From Bacteroidales bacterium (GTDB lineage Bacteria; Bacteroidota; Bacteroidia; Bacteroidales; UBA932), in contig JAGAAD010000069.1 in the NCBI GenBank assembly GCA_017615445.1, positions 1 through 6,903 on the forward strand: a DNA stretch of 6,903 nt, in the 5' to 3' direction. How positions within the stretch are numbered: position 1 is the first letter of the stretch; the number at the start of each line of letters is the position of its first letter. The position numbers and the translations under genes are program-made. Under the pieces are notes generated by a model. The model saw only the letters and a program-made list of their open reading frames with translations. It searched no databases and was not told where the DNA came from. Below, one piece after another: positions 2-6,902 of the stretch.

Positions 2-481
2 CACAATATCTTCAAGGACGACTTCCTCGTCCTTCACGGCGTGTCCATGGGCGGCGCCACAGTGATGATGGCTTCCGGAGACAAACTCCAGCCGTTCATC
101 AAGGCGATAGTGGAAGACTGCGGCTATGCTTCAGTGGTTGCACAGTTCAACAAGAACCGCAGGGACAGCTTCTGGTTCGTTCCTGCCGACATCCTTCAGA
201 GCGCCTCGCTCGTGACCAAGAAAAAGCACGGCTGGGGCTTCTGGGAGGCTTCTTCGGTGGAGCAGCTTAAGAAATCCACGGTCCCTATGCTCTTCATCCA
301 CGGCGACGCAGACGACTTCGTGCCGTTCTCGCATCTGGACAAGTGCTACAATGCCAAGACCCAGGGTTATAAAGAGAAATGGGTAGCGGAAGGAGCGGTG
401 CACGCCAACTCCTTCCAAAAGCACCCTGAAGAGTATAAACAGCACGTCCATGACTTCCTGGAGAAGGTCAAGAGCCTGTAA
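2..481 (+). CDS. Alpha/beta hydrolase, C-terminal part (5' end outside window)
   Basis: The frame is already open at the left edge, so about 159 C-terminal residues are visible. A GTG at 41 lies inside the nucleophile motif and cannot be the true start. The whole catalytic triad can be read. The nucleophile elbow H-G-V-S-M-G-G (GxSxG) has its serine at 44-46. The acid motif HGDADDFVP (HGxxDxxVP) has its Asp at 311-313. The His lies in AVHAN at 401-403. This fits the serine-hydrolase family common in Bacteroidetes, whose members are usually about 300-330 residues with an N-terminal membrane or signal segment, so roughly half is missing. The substrate cannot be read from the sequence; an ester or thioester linked to the steroid/bile-acid chemistry of the next two genes is only a guess from context. 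Its stop overlaps the next start (TAATG), implying one operon and probable translational coupling. Confidence 0.86.
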   Translation, partial: HNIFKDDFLVLHGVSMGGATVMMASGDKLQPFIKAIVEDCGYASVVAQFNKNRRDSFWFVPADILQSASLVTKKKHGWGFWEASSVEQLKKSTVPMLFIHGDADDFVPFSHLDKCYNAKTQGYKEKWVAEGAVHANSFQKHPEEYKQHVHDFLEKVKSL

Positions 482-483
482 TG
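479..483 (+). promoter_or_regulatory. Stop/start overlap TAATG (translational coupling site)
   Basis: The hydrolase stop TAA (479-481) shares its last A with the ATG (481-483) of the 5-alpha-reductase gene. A purine-rich stretch GGAGAAGG at 460-467 lies 13 bases upstream of that ATG. It could act as a weak ribosome binding site but is rather far, and Bacteroidetes often do without one. The overlap itself is seen directly; termination-reinitiation coupling is inferred. Confidence 0.6.
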
Positions 484-1251
484 TTTACTCCGGAAGGTTT
501 TAACATCTTTCTGATCGTAATGGCCGCGGTGGCGGCCGTCGTGTTCGTCTCCCTGTTTTTCGTGGACGCCGGATACGGTAAGTTCTACCAGCCCAAGTGG
601 GGTCCCTCGCTGGACAACCATCTGGGCTGGTTCCTTATGGAAGTGCCCGTGTTCCTGGCGATGCTCCTGCTCTGGTGGTTTTCAGAGCGGCGCTTCGACT
701 GGACAAGACTGGCTTTCCTCTTTCTTTTCGAGCTGCACTACTTCCACCGCTCGTTCATCTTCCCGAACCAGCTTCGCGGCCACAGCCGTATGCCGCTGAG
801 TATAATCCTGATGGGAGTCGTGTTCAACACCCTGAACGCGCTGATGCAGGGCGGCTGGATCTTCTACGTCTCCCCCGCCGCCTACTACGGCATAGACTGG
901 CTGCACAGCATCCCCTTCGTGCTCGGCACCTGCATCTTCATCGCCGGTATGTACATAAACATAAGCTCGGACGCGATTATCCGCGGTCTGCGCCAGCCCG
1001 GCGACACGAAGCACTACCTGCCGCGCGCGGGAATGTTTCGCTATGTCACGAGCGCGAACTATTTCGGCGAGCTGCTGGAGTGGGTGGGGTTCGCGATCCT
1101 GACGTGGTCGCTCGCCGGAGCCGTGTTCGCGCTCTGGACTTTTGCGAATCTCGCCCCGCGCGCGGCCCGCATCTACGACCTCTACCAACGGGAATTCCCC
1201 GGCCAGATAGACACAAAGCGCACCAAGCGCATGATTCCGTTCATTTACTAA
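481..1251 (+). CDS. 3-oxo-5-alpha-steroid 4-dehydrogenase (steroid 5-alpha-reductase) family membrane protein
   Basis: A 256-residue integral membrane protein with six to seven hydrophobic segments (about residues 8-28, 48-67, 76-93, 105-129, 143-163, 198-222). It is nearly the length of human SRD5A2 (254). The C-terminal half carries the family signature: NISSDAIIRGLR (160-171), LPRAGMFRYVTSANYFGE (180-197), LLEWVGFA (198-205) and the terminal IPFIY. Compared from memory with human SRD5A2, Glu54 (MEVP) matches catalytic Glu57, Tyr87 (LHYFHR) matches Tyr91, and Asn160, Asp164, Arg168, Arg171, Asn193, Glu197, Arg227 and Tyr235 match residues around the NADPH site. The family reduces the C4=C5 bond of 3-oxo-delta4 steroids with NADPH to the 5-alpha product, inside the membrane. 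The ATG at 481 fits the length and overlaps the previous stop. The next gene, a flavin ene-reductase 3 bases on, suggests steroid or bile-acid ring reduction. The exact substrate is unknown; a lipid enone such as a polyprenal is an alternative. Confidence 0.93.
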   Translation: MFTPEGFNIFLIVMAAVAAVVFVSLFFVDAGYGKFYQPKWGPSLDNHLGWFLMEVPVFLAMLLLWWFSERRFDWTRLAFLFLFELHYFHRSFIFPNQLRGHSRMPLSIILMGVVFNTLNALMQGGWIFYVSPAAYYGIDWLHSIPFVLGTCIFIAGMYINISSDAIIRGLRQPGDTKHYLPRAGMFRYVTSANYFGELLEWVGFAILTWSLAGAVFALWTFANLAPRAARIYDLYQREFPGQIDTKRTKRMIPFIY

Positions 1252-1254
1252 ACT

Positions 1255-2490
1255 ATGATCCAATCCCCCGTTTTCACCCCGGTCAGTTTCGGGCCGGTGA
1301 CCCTTCGCAACCGCATCATCCGCTCGGCCGCATTTGAGAATATGGCCTACGGCAACAGCCCTTCCGAGGACCTGTATAACTACCACACAGCGGTAGCGCG
1401 GGGCGGCGTGGGCATGACCACCCTCGCCTACGCGTCCGTCAGCCGCAGCGGACTGTCCTTCGACGGCCAGCTCTGGATGCGCGAGGAGATAGTCCCCGGG
1501 CTCAAGCGAATCACGGACGCCATCCACGCCGAAGGCGCGAAATGCTCGATCCAGCTCGGCCATTGCGGCAACATGACGCACCGTGCCACTTGCGGCTGCA
1601 CGCCCGTGGGCGCATCAGGCGGGTTCAACATCTATTCGCCCACTTTCTGCCGCCGCCTGAGCGTCAAGGACATCGACCAGCTGGTGGAAGACTTCGGCCA
1701 CGCCGTGAATCTCGCGCGCGAGGCGGGCTTCGACTGTGTGGAGATCCACGCCGGCCACGGATATCTGATCAGCCAGTTCCTCTCGCCGTTCACCAACCAT
1801 CGCCGCGACGAATACGGCGGCTCGCTGGAGAACCGCATGCGCTTTATGAGACGCGTGATCACCCGCGTTATGCAAGAAGCCCGCGACGACATAGCCGTCG
1901 TGGTGAAGATGAACATGCACGACGGCTTCAAGGGCGGAATGCAGGAGGACGAGTGCCTGGAGGTGGCCCGCGAGCTCGAGAGGCTGGGCGTGCACGGAAT
2001 AGTGCTCTCCGCAGGCTTCGTGAGCAAGGCGCCAATGGAAGTTATGCGCGGCGCGATGCCCATCAAGACCATGTCGCACTACATGGACACGAAGAAGTTC
2101 TGGTGGCTTCAGTTGCTGCTGTTCTTCTTCGGCAGGGTGCTCATTCCCACCGTGCCCTACAAAGAGGCTTATTTCCTGGAGGATGCGAAGAAGTTCCGCG
2201 CCGCGGTGAAACTGCCGCTGATCTATGTAGGCGGAATGGTCTCGCTCAGCAAGATGGAAGAAGTTCTGGCAGCCGGCTTCGACGGCCTGCAGATGGCCCG
2301 TGCACTGATCCGCGACACTGATTTCGTGAACAAACTTCATTCGGGCGAACTCACCAAGAGCCCCTGCGGCCATTCTAACTATTGCATAGGCAGGATGTAC
2401 ACCCTCGAAATGAAATGCAACAAATGCATAGCCGACCTCCCTGCGAAACTTCGCAAAGAGGTCGACCAGGCTGAAGCCAAGTGGGAATAG
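1255..2490 (+). CDS. Old Yellow Enzyme-type NADH:flavin oxidoreductase, candidate 5-beta-reductase-like ene-reductase
   Basis: This 411-residue protein is a single FMN-binding TIM barrel. Family signatures are NRIIRSA (19-25), the QLGHCG strand (100-105), IHAGHGYLISQFLSP (164-178), then NHRRDEYGGSLENR (181-194), and the FMN-phosphate region YVGG (324-327) plus GFDGLQMARALI (341-352). His165 and His168 fit the pair that holds a substrate carbonyl, and Tyr170 is a candidate proton donor. Bile-acid enzymes of the BaiCD/BaiH type and 2,4-dienoyl-CoA reductases are about 640-670 residues, with FAD and NAD(P) domains; these are absent here. A C-terminal cysteine group (Cys371, 377, 388, 391) has non-standard spacing, and a strongly hydrophobic stretch at 282-301 may touch the membrane. 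The gene starts 3 bases after the 5-alpha-reductase stop, so the two are surely co-transcribed. Reduction of a C=C conjugated to a ketone is the safe call; 5-beta-reduction of 3-oxo-delta4 steroids or bile acids is inferred from the pairing. Confidence 0.92.
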   Translation: MIQSPVFTPVSFGPVTLRNRIIRSAAFENMAYGNSPSEDLYNYHTAVARGGVGMTTLAYASVSRSGLSFDGQLWMREEIVPGLKRITDAIHAEGAKCSIQLGHCGNMTHRATCGCTPVGASGGFNIYSPTFCRRLSVKDIDQLVEDFGHAVNLAREAGFDCVEIHAGHGYLISQFLSPFTNHRRDEYGGSLENRMRFMRRVITRVMQEARDDIAVVVKMNMHDGFKGGMQEDECLEVARELERLGVHGIVLSAGFVSKAPMEVMRGAMPIKTMSHYMDTKKFWWLQLLLFFFGRVLIPTVPYKEAYFLEDAKKFRAAVKLPLIYVGGMVSLSKMEEVLAAGFDGLQMARALIRDTDFVNKLHSGELTKSPCGHSNYCIGRMYTLEMKCNKCIADLPAKLRKEVDQAEAKWE

Positions 2491-2520
2491 CTTCCTAGAA
2501 AACTATCTCCACTTTCTGGC
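2476..2520. terminator. Imperfect inverted repeat across the convergent stop codons (possible bidirectional terminator)
   Basis: The left arm GCCAAGTGGGAATAG (2476-2490) can pair with the right arm CTATCTCCACTTTCTGGC (2503-2520). This gives about 14 pairs, with one G-U, one A-C mismatch and a 3-base bulge. The 12-base loop can form three further pairs. The arms lie in the last codons of the two convergent genes and include both stop regions. There is only 4 bp between the genes, so any terminator must overlap coding sequence. No clear T-run follows on either strand, which weakens the case for a classical intrinsic terminator. Folding energy was not computed. Confidence 0.35.
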
Positions 2521-4750
2521 GTATATCATCCGATGCGGCTCCGAGAAGGAGCTGCATTTTTTTGCCCTGCTCAAGAGTCCAGCAGTTCTCCTGGACATTC
2601 CAGTAGCGCAGTTCTTTGACGGGAATCTCGAGGGTGACGGTCTTGGTCTGACCGGGCTTCAGGCTCACGCGCTCGAAGGCCTTCAGTTCCTTCTCAGGCC
2701 ACTCCACCTCGGACTCGCAGCGGTGCACATAGAGCTGCACGACCTCCTCAGCCGGCATATCGCCGTTGTTGGTGAGCGGGAAGCTGACTCTGATCACGTT
2801 TTTCCCGCCGCCCACACGCATAGCGCCGTAGGTGAAATCCACATAGGAAAGTCCATGGCCGAAGGCGTACATAGGCTTGACGTTCTTAGTGTCGAACCAG
2901 CGGTAGCCCACGAGGAAGCCCTCGGTGTAGTGCGACTCAGGCTTCGGGAGCGAATCGATGAGCTTCTGGCGCTCTTCGCGTGTCATCCTCATCACGTCCG
3001 GCCTGAACATAAGGGTGAACAGGTCGCCGCCGGCGTTCGGGTCCGGGAAATTGCCGAGCGCATAGGCCGGCGAATCTTCCAGCTTCATCGGGAAGGTGAA
3101 CGGCAGCTTGCCGGAAGGGGCGATGTCGCCGAAGAGGACTTCGGCCAGCGCCGTTCCGCCCTCAGTGCCGTTCCACCAGCCCTGCACGATGGCGGGGGAA
3201 GCGGGCTCCAGCACCTGCAGATCGGTGGGGCCGCCGGAAATCAGCACGCTCACGAGATTGGCGTTAGCTTCGCGCAGAGCCAGGACGAGTTCTTCCTGGC
3301 CGCAAGGGAGTTTGATGCTCTTGCGGTCCGAGCCCTCGGTCTCGATGCTCTTGTTCGTGCCGCCGAAGAAGATGACCAGGTCGGCCTCCTTCGCGAGGGC
3401 GACAGCCTCGGCGAGCAGCGCGGAATCCGCGGGTTCGTCGATAGCGGCGGCTTCCAGCGGGTTGGGCTCGGCAGGAGCGGGTCCCCAGCGGAAGCCGGGA
3501 TAGTTCTTATAACCAGGCGCGTAGACGACTTCGATGCCCTCGGCGCGCTTCTGAATACCCTCAAGCGGAGTGACCTCATAGAGAGCTTTCACGCCTGCGC
3601 CCATTCCGCCGCTCTGGGTCTTCAGCACGGCATTCTGGCCGATCACGGCTATCTTTTTGACGGTCGGAGCGACAGGCAGCAGGCCACCTTCGTTCTTGAG
3701 AAGGACTATAGACTTTTCAGCCACCTCGAGGGCTATCTTCTGGCACTCGGGCTGCGAGGTCATCACCGTGTTCGCGACATCGGCCGGAACAGCCTCGATG
3801 GCATAGCGGACGCGCAGAATCTGACGGACTTTCTCGTCCACGAGGTCCTCGGTCAGCGCGCCGGTGGCGATCGAATCGATCACGGGCTGGCCCAGATAAT
3901 TGTCGCCCGTCATCTGCACGTTAAGGCCGTGCAGCATAGCGCCCATCGTGCTATGGGTTCCGCCCCAGTCCGAGACGGTCATTCCCTTGAAGCCCCATTC
4001 GCCGCGCAGGATCTCGTTCAGCAGGTGCTCGTTTTCCGAGCAATAGTCGCCGTTGACCTTGTTGTAGGCCGGCATCACGCTCATCGCGCCGCCTTCCACG
4101 ATCGCGCTCTCGAAGGGCTTGAGGTAAATCTCCCTGAGCGTGCGCTCGTCTATTTTGACGTCCACGCTGCCGCGGTTGGTTTCCTGGTTGTTCACGGCGA
4201 AGTGCTTGATGCACACGGCAGTGCCCTGGTCCTGACAGCCCTTCGTGTACTCGAGCGAAAGAGCGGCCGAGAGGATCGGGTCCTCGCTCAGGTACTCGTA
4301 GGTGCGGCCGCCCACGGGCAGACGCTGAATGTTCACTGCCGGGCCGAGGATCACGTCCTTGCCGCGCAGACGGGCTTCCTTGCCCATGCCCTTGCCGTAG
4401 ATGTAGGCCATCTCACGACTCCAGGTGGCGGCGAGGGCCGAACCTGTGGGGAAATAGGTGGCGGAGTCCAGCTTCCAGCCGGCGCTCATAAAGCCGTTCG
4501 GCTGGCCTTCTTCGCGTATGCCGAACGGGCCGTCCGCGTAGTTGATGTCCGCGATGCCGAGGCGCTCGACTCCGGCTGAGGACATGTTGGTCTTCGAATG
4601 AAGCATGTTGACTTTCTCCTCGAGAGTCATCTTGGAGATGACTGCATTGATCATCGCATCGTTGACGGTGAGTCTTTCCTGAGGAGTGCTTGTGATGCAG
4701 GAGGCGCCGAGTACGGCCGCGGCTGCAAGGAGTAAAAATATTCTTTTCAT
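2495..4750 (-). CDS. Glycoside hydrolase family 3 beta-glycosidase (beta-glucosidase-like), exported lipoprotein
   Basis: A full-length 751-residue GH3 enzyme with the three-part layout: TIM barrel (about 30-320), alpha/beta sandwich (about 345-560) and a fibronectin III-like C-terminal domain (about 650-735). The barrel shows DGPFGIR (73-79), GGRTYEYLSEDP (147-158), KHFAVNNQETNRG (182-194) and TVSDWGG (258-264). Asp261 is the nucleophile, codon 3968-3970. The sandwich has GGTN and ETEGSDR (470-476), with Glu472 (codon 3335-3337) as the likely acid/base. It should hydrolyse terminal non-reducing beta-glycosides, most often beta-glucosides; the exact sugar and aglycone cannot be read. An N-terminal signal with a Cys at 18 suggests a lipoprotein. 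No acidic export signal follows the Cys (ITSTP), so periplasmic placement is favoured over the surface. It starts one base after the regulator stop (TAG-T-ATG), so the two form an operon. A roughly 38-residue charged stretch (570-607) between the sandwich and the C-terminal domain looks longer than usual. Confidence 0.97.
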   Translation of the reverse strand: MKRIFLLLAAAAVLGASCITSTPQERLTVNDAMINAVISKMTLEEKVNMLHSKTNMSSAGVERLGIADINYADGPFGIREEGQPNGFMSAGWKLDSATYFPTGSALAATWSREMAYIYGKGMGKEARLRGKDVILGPAVNIQRLPVGGRTYEYLSEDPILSAALSLEYTKGCQDQGTAVCIKHFAVNNQETNRGSVDVKIDERTLREIYLKPFESAIVEGGAMSVMPAYNKVNGDYCSENEHLLNEILRGEWGFKGMTVSDWGGTHSTMGAMLHGLNVQMTGDNYLGQPVIDSIATGALTEDLVDEKVRQILRVRYAIEAVPADVANTVMTSQPECQKIALEVAEKSIVLLKNEGGLLPVAPTVKKIAVIGQNAVLKTQSGGMGAGVKALYEVTPLEGIQKRAEGIEVVYAPGYKNYPGFRWGPAPAEPNPLEAAAIDEPADSALLAEAVALAKEADLVIFFGGTNKSIETEGSDRKSIKLPCGQEELVLALREANANLVSVLISGGPTDLQVLEPASPAIVQGWWNGTEGGTALAEVLFGDIAPSGKLPFTFPMKLEDSPAYALGNFPDPNAGGDLFTLMFRPDVMRMTREERQKLIDSLPKPESHYTEGFLVGYRWFDTKNVKPMYAFGHGLSYVDFTYGAMRVGGGKNVIRVSFPLTNNGDMPAEEVVQLYVHRCESEVEWPEKELKAFERVSLKPGQTKTVTLEIPVKELRYWNVQENCWTLEQGKKMQLLLGAASDDIRQKVEIVF
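4697..4750 (-). other. Lipoprotein signal peptide of the GH3 enzyme
   Basis: Residues 1-18 consist of the basic start MKR, an Ala/Leu-rich hydrophobic core and LGASC, with Cys18 as the probable lipidated residue. The residue at -3 is Gly rather than the preferred Leu, with Leu at -4, so this is a relaxed lipobox of the kind tolerated in Bacteroidetes. Ordinary signal peptidase I cleavage is the alternative. Confidence 0.7.
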
Positions 4751-4751
4751 A

Positions 4752-6902
4752 CTATCCAGTGTATTCAGAAGGGGGCACTCCGAACTGTTTCTTGAACGAA
4801 GTGCTGAAGTGAGACAAGGTGTTGAAGCCGGTCATCCAGGCTATCTCGGACATGTTGTATTTGCCCTCGCGCAGGAGCTCGGCCGCCCTGTTAAGTTTGT
4901 AGTGCTTGAAGAACACGGACGGATTCTCGCCAGTCAGGCCCTTCACTTTGTAGTAGAACTTCGTGCGGGAGATCTTCATCATCTCGCAGACCTTCACTAT
5001 CTCCAGATCCGTGTTAGCCAGTTCCTTTTCCATCAGCGCATAGAGGTCGCGCATGAAGGCCGCATCGCGCGGCGAGAGAGCTTCCGGCGGGATGTTTTCG
5101 GTGGTGGTGGCGTTGCCCAGCTGCCTGCGAAGCTTCTCGCGGTTTTCGAGCAGCGACTTCACGAGCGCCAGCAGATACTGCGGCTGGAAGGGCTTGCTGA
5201 CATAGGCGTCCGCGCCCTTGTCCAGGCCCTGCACCTGGCTCTCCACTGCCACCTTGGCGGTGACGAGCACCACGGGGATATGCGAGAGTTGCAGGTCGTT
5301 CTTAATCTTTTCGCAGAGCTGATAGCCGCTCTCGCCCGGCATCACCACATCGCTGATGACGAGGTCCGGGGCGTCGTCCTGCATTCCGCGCAGCGCACTC
5401 GCCACGTCGAAATAGATGGACACACGGTACTGCGGTTTCAGCAGGAGCTTTATGTAGTTCGCGATGTCTATATCGTCGTCCACCACAGCGATGTGCTTGC
5501 GGTCCTGATCCTCCGAATTGTCTTCCGGCATCAGAATCTCAGGAATGCTCTCGGTGATAAGGTTCTGAGGTTCCGCGTCCGTGCGCTCGTCCTTCGTGTA
5601 GGAGGATGCGCTCACCGGCACGATGAAGCAGAATTCCGCTCCGCCTCCGGGCCTGTTGATCGCCTTGATGTAGCCGTGGTGCAGAGTGATCAGCACGCGG
5701 GCATAGTACAGACCGATTCCGGAACCGTGGGTGTTCGATTTCGATGCGCCCTGGTAGAAGCGTTCGAAGATCTTTTCCATTTCGTCTTCAGGAATTCCGG
5801 GGCCGGTGTCGGAAACGCGGATTGCGGCGTACTGGCCGTCCGTGTCTTCATCCGTGAGCGGGAAAAGAGCCGCTGCGTCCGCGCGGGAAATAACGTCGAA
5901 CGAAAGGGTGACCTTGCCGCCGGAGGGCGTGAATTTCAGCGCGTTCGAGAGAAGATTCATAAGGATCTTCTGCACTTTGTCCGCGTCTACCCACATAGTG
6001 AAGCTGTCCTCCAGACCGGTGGTGGCGAGTTCTATTCCCTTGCTCTGGGCATTGAAACGGAAGAGGTCCGCAATACTCTTGAGCGGCGGAACGATGTCCA
6101 TCTTCGCCACCTTCATCTGGAGTTTGCGGTTGCCGATGCGGTTGAAATCCAGCAGCTGGTTCACCAGCGAGAGCATCCACGCCGAATTGCGTCTGATTAT
6201 GTCCACCAAAGCGCGATCTGCGCCTTTTATGTTCTCCGATGCTGCCAGCTGGCCAGCAGGACCTGCAATCATAGTCAGAGGGGTGCGGAACTCGTGAGCC
6301 ACGTTCGAGAAGTAGTTCATCTGGATCTTGTTCAGCTTCTTCTCCTCCTGCTCGGCCATCTCGGCACGTTCCTGCTCAAGCTTCACCTCGCGAATACGCT
6401 CGGCGGCTTCGGCCCTCACGCGCCTGACGTGCTTCCAGAAAGTGTAACCCATGCCCACCAGGAAGCCTCCCAGCAGCACCCAAATTATAATAGCCCACCA
6501 GGTGGCGTACCACGGCGGGAGCACCCTGATGCGGAGGACCTGCTCGTCCGAAATGACATTGCGGCCTTCGCCGGAGAGCCTCACCTTGAAGAGGTAACGG
6601 CCAGAGGGAATGTTAGAATAATAAGCTTCATTCGCGGTGCCGCATTCGACCCAATCCTGGTCGAAACCCTCCATCTTATATTTGTAGTGCATGTGCACAT
6701 GCTCGCCGTAGTCCAGCGCTGCGAAAGCGATACTGAAGGCGTTGTCTTTGTGCGGAATCACCACATCAGGCCTGCCCGGAAGTGAGCTCTCGACGGGAGC
6801 GTTCGGGCCCGGCTGCACGAGGGTGTTGTGGATCTTCAGGTATTCGAAGACTATGGGCACGGTGCGCTGGTCGCTGACTTCCAGCGGGGTGAACGAAGTC
6901 AG
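4752..6902 (-). CDS. Hybrid two-component system sensor kinase/response regulator with AraC DNA-binding domain (5' end outside window)
   Basis: The frame is open to the right edge, and GTG at 6858-6860 is an internal Val, so the N-terminal sensor repeats are missing. Counting from that Val, the visible order is as follows. A Y_Y_Y domain (about 38-113) is periplasmic. A membrane helix (about 118-141, nt 6438-6509) leads into a charged coiled linker (144-180). A HisKA domain carries the phospho-acceptor His189 in HEFRTP. The kinase ATPase domain shows an N box (Asn302/Asn306), DTGPGIP (351-357) and GSGIGL (379-384). A receiver domain (about 455-570) has Asp461-463, phospho-acceptor Asp504, Thr534 and Lys556. 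A C-terminal AraC helix-turn-helix pair spans about 605-700. All key phosphorelay residues are present, so it looks functional. Family members are inner-membrane sensors that bind a glycan breakdown product in the periplasm and activate nearby polysaccharide-use genes. The GH3 gene one base downstream is the obvious candidate target. The ligand cannot be judged because the sensor repeats lie outside the window. Confidence 0.97.
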   Translation of the reverse strand: MTSFTPLEVSDQRTVPIVFEYLKIHNTLVQPGPNAPVESSLPGRPDVVIPHKDNAFSIAFAALDYGEHVHMHYKYKMEGFDQDWVECGTANEAYYSNIPSGRYLFKVRLSGEGRNVISDEQVLRIRVLPPWYATWWAIIIWVLLGGFLVGMGYTFWKHVRRVRAEAAERIREVKLEQERAEMAEQEEKKLNKIQMNYFSNVAHEFRTPLTMIAGPAGQLAASENIKGADRALVDIIRRNSAWMLSLVNQLLDFNRIGNRKLQMKVAKMDIVPPLKSIADLFRFNAQSKGIELATTGLEDSFTMWVDADKVQKILMNLLSNALKFTPSGGKVTLSFDVISRADAAALFPLTDEDTDGQYAAIRVSDTGPGIPEDEMEKIFERFYQGASKSNTHGSGIGLYYARVLITLHHGYIKAINRPGGGAEFCFIVPVSASSYTKDERTDAEPQNLITESIPEILMPEDNSEDQDRKHIAVVDDDIDIANYIKLLLKPQYRVSIYFDVASALRGMQDDAPDLVISDVVMPGESGYQLCEKIKNDLQLSHIPVVLVTAKVAVESQVQGLDKGADAYVSKPFQPQYLLALVKSLLENREKLRRQLGNATTTENIPPEALSPRDAAFMRDLYALMEKELANTDLEIVKVCEMMKISRTKFYYKVKGLTGENPSVFFKHYKLNRAAELLREGKYNMSEIAWMTGFNTLSHFSTSFKKQFGVPPSEYTG

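What the first reader, a model, noticed from the sequence alone, without database searches (positions are those of the whole stretch)
481..2490. Back-to-back steroid 5-alpha-reductase and flavin ene-reductase: a candidate stereodivergent steroid/bile-acid reduction operon
An SRD5A-like membrane reductase and an Old Yellow Enzyme-type reductase sit 3 bases apart in one transcription unit. Both folds can reduce the C4=C5 bond of 3-oxo-delta4 steroids, typically to 5-alpha and 5-beta products. Gut Bacteroidetes such as Parabacteroides and Odoribacteraceae are known to carry 5-alpha- and 5-beta-reductase genes for isoallo-bile acid formation together with a 3-beta-hydroxysteroid dehydrogenase. Here the visible partner is an alpha/beta hydrolase instead, so this may be a variant cluster with a different substrate.
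Basis: partly seen in the sequence, partly recalled or inferred. Interest (0 to 1): 0.82.

Follow-up and report, generated by a model that had tools for sequence, protein, structure and literature searches.

The report
Bacteroidales steroid-ring-flipping reductase gene pair
Two neighbouring genes of a gut Bacteroidales bacterium encode enzymes that very probably reduce the same ring bond of steroids from opposite faces; the gene pair is already known from bile-acid-modifying gut bacteria, but this copy belongs to a branch found mostly in ruminant foregut that lacks the bile-salt-cleaving enzyme, so its steroid is probably not a bile acid.

Summary
An SRD5A-type membrane reductase (481-1251) and a flavin ene-reductase (1255-2490) lie 3 bases apart on one strand, and the tail of an alpha/beta hydrolase (2-481) overlaps the first gene by one base. 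The adjacency is conserved in 79 of 80 close relatives. All 52 OYE-paired SRD5A rows put in a tree fall in one branch, apart from 38 other Bacteroidia SRD5A copies. Close relatives normally carry one or two short-chain dehydrogenases (67 of 69 loci with 3 kb of room on both sides), so the missing hydroxysteroid dehydrogenase is at least partly an effect of where this contig ends. A 5AR gene clustered with a 3beta-HSDH and a BaiCD/BaiH-like flavoenzyme is already reported in Bacteroidota: this is a new member of a known kind. Two things go further. The ene-reductase is a short, 'headless' relative of FadH/BaiCD Fe-S flavoenzymes (barrel plus three-cysteine tail, no FAD/NAD(P) domain). And sampled species with the window-like type rarely have full-length bile salt hydrolase (3 of 43), whereas those with the more distant type in the same genus usually do (35 of 47). 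The branch may work on dietary or protozoal steroids. No substrate was tested.

The parts
2..481 (+). C-terminal part (159 aa) of an alpha/beta hydrolase; its stop overlaps the next start by one base (TAATG). Possible but unproven operon member
   Evidence: Peptidase_S9 38.9 bits; homologue upstream in L029 and convergent downstream in L007; rarely conserved
481..1251 (+). SRD5A-type integral membrane 3-oxo-steroid 4-ene reductase (candidate 5-alpha-reductase, 5AR), 256 aa
   Evidence: PF02544 142.7 bits; PDB 7c83 E 3.8e-50 and 7bw1 E 1.8e-38; AlphaFold2 model mean pLDDT 83.4, TM 0.87 to 7c83
640..642 (+). Codon of Glu54, counterpart of human SRD5A2 Glu57 (catalytic role recalled)
   Evidence: E in 162 of 162 aligned Bacteroidia SRD5A copies (2 further copies, L087 and L104, fell to a length filter); the human Gln56 position is Met in 162 of 162
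739..741 (+). Codon of Tyr87, counterpart of human SRD5A2 Tyr91 (catalytic role recalled)
   Evidence: Y in 162 of 162
1255..2490 (+). Short Fe-S-flavoenzyme-like Old Yellow Enzyme (candidate 5-beta-reductase / 3-oxo-5beta-steroid 4-dehydrogenase, 5BR), 411 aa, no FAD/NAD(P) domain
   Evidence: PF00724 193.6 bits; NCBIfam top hits mycofactocin OYE 2 and BaiCD, far below cut-offs; structural match to FadH/TMADH/NCR
1747..1764 (+). Active-site motif H165-A-G-H168-G-Y170 (OYE catalytic His/His/Tyr; roles recalled)
   Evidence: H165, H168 and Y170 at least 97% conserved in 126 aligned sequences
2098..2145 (+). Hydrophobic helix FWWLQLLLFFFGRVLI (residues 282-297); possible membrane-docking element (inference)
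   Evidence: sequence; predicted helix 279-296; segment present in the relatives printed, hydrophobicity and length vary
2365..2418 (+). Invariant Cys371-x5-Cys377-x10-Cys388: looks like a reduced form of the four-Cys Fe-S motif of FadH/BaiCD (that motif recalled)
   Evidence: each Cys in 126 of 126 aligned sequences

Best explanation
The pair is a branch of the Bacteroidales steroid A-ring redox operon. The SRD5A-type membrane enzyme reduces the C4=C5 bond of a 3-oxo-delta4 steroid with NADPH to the flat 5-alpha product. The short flavin ene-reductase acts on the same bond to give, or to oxidise, the bent 5-beta product. SDR partners, seen beside the pair in nearly all close relatives but not within this contig, interconvert the 3-oxo and 3-hydroxy forms. 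Together they would switch a steroid between 5-beta and 5-alpha forms through the shared delta4-3-ketone. In this branch, found mostly in ruminant foregut, the substrate is more likely a dietary, protozoal or hormonal steroid than a bile acid. Shown here: gene identity, conserved adjacency, common branch of the paired SRD5A copies, conserved catalytic residues, SDR partners in close relatives, low frequency of full-length bile salt hydrolase in the branch. Inferred: substrate, stereochemistry, reaction direction, cofactor, SDR specificity, presence of SDRs near this copy.
For: Conserved adjacency: 79 of 80 and 38 of 54 loci. One SRD5A branch (SH-aLRT 100) holds all 52 paired rows of the tree, window included, plus 7 unpaired; the other 38 Bacteroidia SRD5A copies lie outside it. 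The only PDB fold matches with E under 0.001 are the steroid 5alpha-reductases 7c83 and 7bw1. Glu and Tyr counterparts of the SRD5A active site invariant in 162 of 162. OYE catalytic motif conserved. SDRs beside the pair in 67 of 69 close-relative loci and 33 of 42 order-sample loci with room. Literature: 5AR clustered with 3beta-HSDH and a BaiCD/BaiH-like flavoenzyme, and the P. merdae 5AR disruption (PMC10382948 passages). In the order sample the OYE clade goes with full-length CBAH (31 of 57 against 35 of 336), fitting exposure to steroids in many carriers. Bile-poor branch: 3 of 43, 0 of 50.
Against: No activity data for any protein of this clade were examined. No sequence of a characterised 5AR or 5BR was available under its name, so orthology to P. 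merdae rests on shared architecture, not alignment. The SRD5A fold also serves polyprenal and enoyl-CoA reductases (recalled), and 22of_A, a probable enoyl-CoA reductase, matches weakly (E 1.9e-7). All 162 aligned Bacteroidia SRD5A copies have Met where human SRD5A2 and 7c83 have Gln. The OYE lacks the FAD/NAD(P) domain of BaiCD-type enzymes. In 16 of 54 OYE-bearing order-sample loci SRD5A is not beside it. In the more distant type of the same genus, 44 of 47 fetched loci show no match to the two SDRs near the pair (several are cut short).
Confidence: 0.67

Rival explanations
1. Same operon and same enzymes, with bile acids as the natural substrate here as in Parabacteroides and Odoribacter (isoallo-bile-acid formation).
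For: Architecture matches the reported bile-acid cluster (PMC10382948 passage). Many carriers elsewhere in the order have full-length CBAH: 31 of 57. isoalloLCA is reported in the dairy-cow large intestine (PMC9750977 passage). The window's own body site is unknown.
Against: The window-like type rarely has full-length CBAH: 3 of 43 in the genus sample, no different from species without the OYE, 4 of 102, p 0.42; 0 of 50 tested genomes of the 80 relatives. Of the 38 relatives whose record title names a site, 35 are foregut, upstream of bile entry (recalled anatomy).
Confidence: 0.2
2. The pair acts on a non-steroid alpha,beta-unsaturated carbonyl, for instance a polyprenoid, an enoyl thioester or a plant terpenoid.
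For: SRD5A and OYE folds are broad ene-reductase folds (recalled). No substrate data. The Met substitution in the SRD5A active site is shared by all 162 aligned Bacteroidia copies.
Against: Patchy spread argues against a core lipid step: OYE clade in 57 of 393 Bacteroidales species sampled. The fold is closest to the two solved steroid 5alpha-reductases. SDR partners fit 3-hydroxysteroid chemistry, though SDRs serve many substrates.
Confidence: 0.13

Closest known systems
Bacteroidota 5AR/5BR/3beta-HSDH isoallo-bile-acid gene cluster (Parabacteroides merdae and others; primary papers Sato 2021 and Li 2021 not held, seen only through passages of PMC10382948 and PMC11271093)
   Same: SRD5A-type gene clustered with an NADH:flavin oxidoreductase and, in relatives of the window, SDR genes; Bacteroidales hosts
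   Different: Window branch is found mostly in ruminant foregut and rarely has full-length bile salt hydrolase; close relatives often have two SDRs and a PCMD protein; the visible neighbour in the window is an alpha/beta hydrolase; sequence orthology to the characterised enzymes not tested
PbSRD5A (PDB 7c83) and human SRD5A2 (7bw1)
   Same: Same fold (TM 0.87 and 0.78); Glu and Tyr active-site counterparts
   Different: Met instead of Gln at the human Gln56 position; 39% and 35% identity in the structural alignments
BaiCD/BaiH and Clostridial steroid 5beta-reductase ci2350 (Old Yellow Enzyme family; OsrB recalled)
   Same: OYE barrel; the tail aligns with the region beyond the barrel of FadH-like two-domain enzymes
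   Different: 411 aa, no FAD/NAD(P) domain, three rather than four motif cysteines; far below the BaiCD cut-off (185 against 825 bits). PMC12238238 left ci2350 homologues under 500 aa out of its tree (passage)

Membership tests
Steroid 5-alpha-reductase (SRD5A) family | Pfam Steroid_dh C-terminal domain above cut-off | tested here: met
   142.7 bits against 22.6
Steroid 5-alpha-reductase (SRD5A) family | SRD5A fold | tested here: met
   Model mean pLDDT 83.4; TM 0.87 to 7c83, 0.78 to 7bw1
Steroid 5-alpha-reductase (SRD5A) family | Active-site Gln-Glu and Tyr | tested here: inconclusive
   Glu and Tyr conserved 162 of 162; Gln replaced by Met 162 of 162
Steroid 5-alpha-reductase (SRD5A) family | NADPH-dependent 5alpha-reduction of a 3-oxo-delta4 steroid | not testable with these tools
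   no assay
Fe-S flavoenzymes of the FadH/BaiCD type | OYE barrel with His/His/Tyr active site | tested here: met
   PF00724 193.6 bits; motif conserved
Fe-S flavoenzymes of the FadH/BaiCD type | Four-cysteine [4Fe-4S] motif (recalled) | tested here: not met
   Three motif cysteines, C-x5-C-x10-C, in 126 of 126; cluster binding untested
Fe-S flavoenzymes of the FadH/BaiCD type | C-terminal FAD and NAD(P)H domains | tested here: not met
   Protein ends at 411 aa; the best stretch of the two top NCBIfam models covers only about the first 260 of 642-645 positions
BaiCD equivalog (NF041087) | Score over the curated cut-off | tested here: not met
   185 against 825 bits
Bacteroidota 5AR/5BR/3beta-HSDH cluster | SRD5A gene clustered with NADH:flavin oxidoreductase | tested here: met
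   Window 481-2490; conserved in 79 of 80 loci
Bacteroidota 5AR/5BR/3beta-HSDH cluster | Hydroxysteroid dehydrogenase gene in the cluster | tested here: inconclusive
   Not visible in the window, whose upstream side is cut; an SDR is present in 67 of 69 close relatives with room; SDR substrate unknown
Bacteroidota 5AR/5BR/3beta-HSDH cluster | Sequence orthology to the characterised P. merdae/Odoribacter proteins | not tested
   Those sequences were not obtainable under a name; Sato 2021 and Li 2021 are not held
Bacteroidota 5AR/5BR/3beta-HSDH cluster | Formation of allo/isoallo bile acids | not testable with these tools
   no assay

The most novel reading that the evidence does not exclude
The window belongs to a bile-independent branch of the 5AR/5BR operon, used by ruminant-foregut Bacteroidales to saturate dietary plant-sterol or protozoal 3-oxo-delta4 steroids to both 5-alpha and 5-beta products. 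It could be a source of ruminant stanols and an anaerobic electron sink. The 5BR partner would be a headless flavoenzyme that takes electrons through its three-cysteine tail from an outside donor and may dock on the membrane beside SRD5A.
Probability: 0.3. Interest if true: 0.75.

Novelty: new member of a known kind. Interest (0 to 1): 0.5.

Why it matters
The papers whose passages I saw treat the Bacteroidota 5AR/5BR cluster as a bile-acid trait of the gut. Finding the same pair widespread in Bacteroidales that mostly lack full-length bile salt hydrolase, many of them from ruminant foregut, suggests the chemistry is broader than bile acids. Herbivore faeces are dominated by 5beta-stanols expected from plant sterols (PMC6366745 passage). 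A 2021 review found no purified bacterial 3-oxo-delta4-steroid 5beta-reductase and cites only unpublished homologues for the cholesterol-reducing Bacteroides sp. D8 (PMC8468837 passages); clostridial 5beta-reductases have since been identified (PMC12238238 passages), in a survey that left out homologues under 500 aa. The operon gives a concrete, testable candidate, and the short ene-reductase would extend what a 5beta-reductase can look like.

Tried and rejected
Rejected: 'the hydrolase replaces the HSDH'. The contig begins inside the hydrolase, and close relatives carry SDRs on either side. Rejected: the GH3 and hybrid-kinase genes (2495-6902, minus strand) as parts. In the 80 loci a GH3 match is on the operon strand within 5 kb in 2 and the kinase in 0; one 54% GH3 lies on the other strand in L019. 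Doubted: SRD5A as a near-universal Bacteroidia gene. Full-length matches (E 2.1e-36 or better) occur in 35 of 295 class genomes, against 97 of 295 with any match at E 0.001; a chicken-caecum genome paper reports the SRD5A annotation in all but three of its Bacteroidetes isolates (PMC6069880 passage), which I could not reconcile and which may rest on the weaker homologues.

Led nowhere: no genome is held for the window. Two draws of the nearest genus, 200 and 400 species, found nothing closer than G001 (OYE 86%, SRD5A 84%), so the upstream side of this very contig stayed unread. The third protein search showed 120 of 6592 hits, none with the name of a cultured species. Rumen or stanol literature searches listed no paper that, by title and abstract start, is about such an operon; one search gave only general rumen papers. 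My guesses that some unnamed loci are Alistipes, Odoribacteraceae or Parabacteroides (note) were never verified and are not used.

Cautions on the CBAH cross-tab: species are related, and on the OYE tree the label needs 17 changes against about 47 in shuffles, so the Fisher p-values overstate independence. PF02275 also covers enzymes other than bile salt hydrolase (recalled); I counted near-full-length matches only, E 2.2e-51 or better in the genus sample and 1.7e-36 or better in the order sample, while shorter weak matches (111 of 200 and 106 of 393 genomes had any match) were not counted. The three post-gastric relatives tested (caecum, horse faeces, duodenum) also lacked it, so absence marks the lineage, not strictly the foregut. 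Genome completeness was not controlled.
Full report
WHAT IS THERE. The window holds five genes. On the plus strand are the tail of an alpha/beta hydrolase (2-481), an SRD5A-type membrane protein (481-1251, 256 aa) and an Old-Yellow-Enzyme-type protein (1255-2490, 411 aa). On the minus strand are a GH3 glycosidase (2495-4750) and a hybrid histidine kinase with a C-terminal HTH_18 domain (4752-6902). Pfam assigns Steroid_dh at 142.7 bits and Oxidored_FMN at 193.6 bits, both far above cut-off.

THE PAIR IS CONSERVED. A scan of genome contigs found 318 relatives of the SRD5A protein and kept the best 80 loci; their record titles all say Bacteroidales, Bacteroidia, Bacteroidaceae or Candidatus Limimorpha. 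In 79 of the 80 the OYE orthologue follows on the same strand, median gap 8 nt by tblastn edges; L009 is the exception. Among 393 Bacteroidales species sampled, 66 had an OYE match at E 1e-60 or better, and 57 of these are at 48% identity or more (counted). I fetched 60 of the 66 loci; 54 have the OYE over 45% identity and 38 of those have SRD5A adjacent. Of the 16 where it is not, 5 genomes hold an operon-type SRD5A on another contig (47-58% identity), 10 hold only the generic type (35-41%) and 1 holds none; of two genomes with a more distant OYE, one had a generic copy and one none.

ONE SRD5A BRANCH. The tree has 99 rows: the window, 7c83, 7bw1, 13 chosen loci of the 79 paired close relatives, all 38 paired order-sample copies, and 45 of the 47 unpaired copies (L087 and L104 fell to a length filter). 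All 52 paired rows, window included, fall in one branch with SH-aLRT 100 and a stem of 1.05. Seven unpaired rows fall inside it. The other 38 Bacteroidia SRD5A copies lie outside, and no OYE was found beside any of them (loci with about 1.5 kb of flank, some less). The catalytic Glu and Tyr of SRD5A2 (roles recalled) have counterparts in 162 of 162 copies, paired and unpaired, while the human Gln56 position is Met in all 162. The AlphaFold2 model (mean pLDDT 83.4) matches only 7c83 (TM 0.87) and 7bw1 (TM 0.78) with E under 0.001. It is a quick tree with long branches for the two outgroup rows.

PARTNERS. Two SDR families recur beside the pair: SDR-A (classical SDR) and SDR-B (closest NCBIfam models PRK06197/PRK05854; protochlorophyllide reductases among its PDB hits), both adh_short by Pfam. 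Of 69 loci among the 80 with at least 3 kb on both sides, 67 have an SDR on the same strand within 5 kb and 40 have both; in the order sample 33 of 42 and 11 of 42. A PCMD-domain protein is near in 35 of 80. Gene order varies, and SDR-A is often upstream of SRD5A, as in the nearest relative L007. The window shows no SDR downstream, and its upstream side is cut inside the hydrolase. L029 has hydrolase, PCMD, SDR-A, SRD5A, OYE, SDR-B in that order. Against a fixed operon: of the 47 fetched genus loci of the more distant type, 44 show no match to these SDRs near the pair, though several end soon after the OYE.

KNOWN KIND. [quoted passage not shown] The primary papers are not held, so membership rests on architecture and family, not on alignment to those proteins.

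BILE OR NOT. Of 80 record titles, 38 name a body site: 35 foregut (omasum 15, rumen 12, reticulum 5, abomasum 3), one caecum, one faeces, one duodenum; 24 more bear a RUG or RUI label and 18 name no site. In the genus sample of 200 species, 98 carry the OYE. Near-full-length CBAH (bile salt hydrolase family) is in 3 of 43 species with an OYE at 74% identity or more, 1 of 8 at 63-68%, 35 of 47 at 62% or less, and 4 of 102 without the OYE. The window-like type does not differ from OYE-less species (p 0.42). None of 50 tested genomes of the 80 loci has a CBAH match at E 1e-20; 30 were not tested. In the OYE tree the window sits in a set of 28 rows whose 27 labelled members all lack CBAH; the next larger sets hold 1 of 28 and 3 of 39 labelled rows with it. 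In the order as a whole the OYE clade goes with CBAH (31 of 57 against 35 of 336), which speaks for bile acids in many carriers. I read this as one redox toolkit used in bile-rich and bile-poor settings. Relatedness weakens the statistics, and no substrate is shown.

VERDICT. A real, conserved operon core and a new member of a known kind. Its bile-poor branch, mostly from ruminant foregut, and its shortened flavoenzyme are the parts worth a bench test.

Noticed in passing
window 2495-6902: GH3 glycosidase (best NCBIfam model exo-alpha-1,6-L-arabinopyranosidase, 475 bits against a cut-off of 1300) next to a hybrid histidine kinase with an HTH_18 domain: looks like a small glycan-utilisation locus, not conserved beside the reductase pair.
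   Followed up: partly
L050 6087-7538 and L068 11934-13388: In the two horse-associated loci (L068 is titled horse feces; L050 is Candidatus Limimorpha equi) a rhamnosidase-like glycoside hydrolase lies between OYE and SDR-A, which could hint at steroid glycosides (only the L050 protein was scanned).
   Followed up: partly
L173 10002-17301: The pair sits beside a response regulator, a P-II-like protein and an AcrB-type transporter gene.
   Followed up: no
L149, L152, L162, L163, L176, L179, L186: OYE plus SDR-A without a neighbouring SRD5A; L149, L152, L162 and L176 lie in the first branch of the midpoint-rooted OYE tree, so the OYE-SDR unit may be older than the SRD5A partnership.
   Followed up: partly
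L305, L306, L307: Loci with two SDR-A-like genes flanking the OYE and no SRD5A match nearby.
   Followed up: no
G700, G855, G861, G766: OYE matches with one in-frame stop each: possible decay or assembly error in a few species.
   Followed up: no
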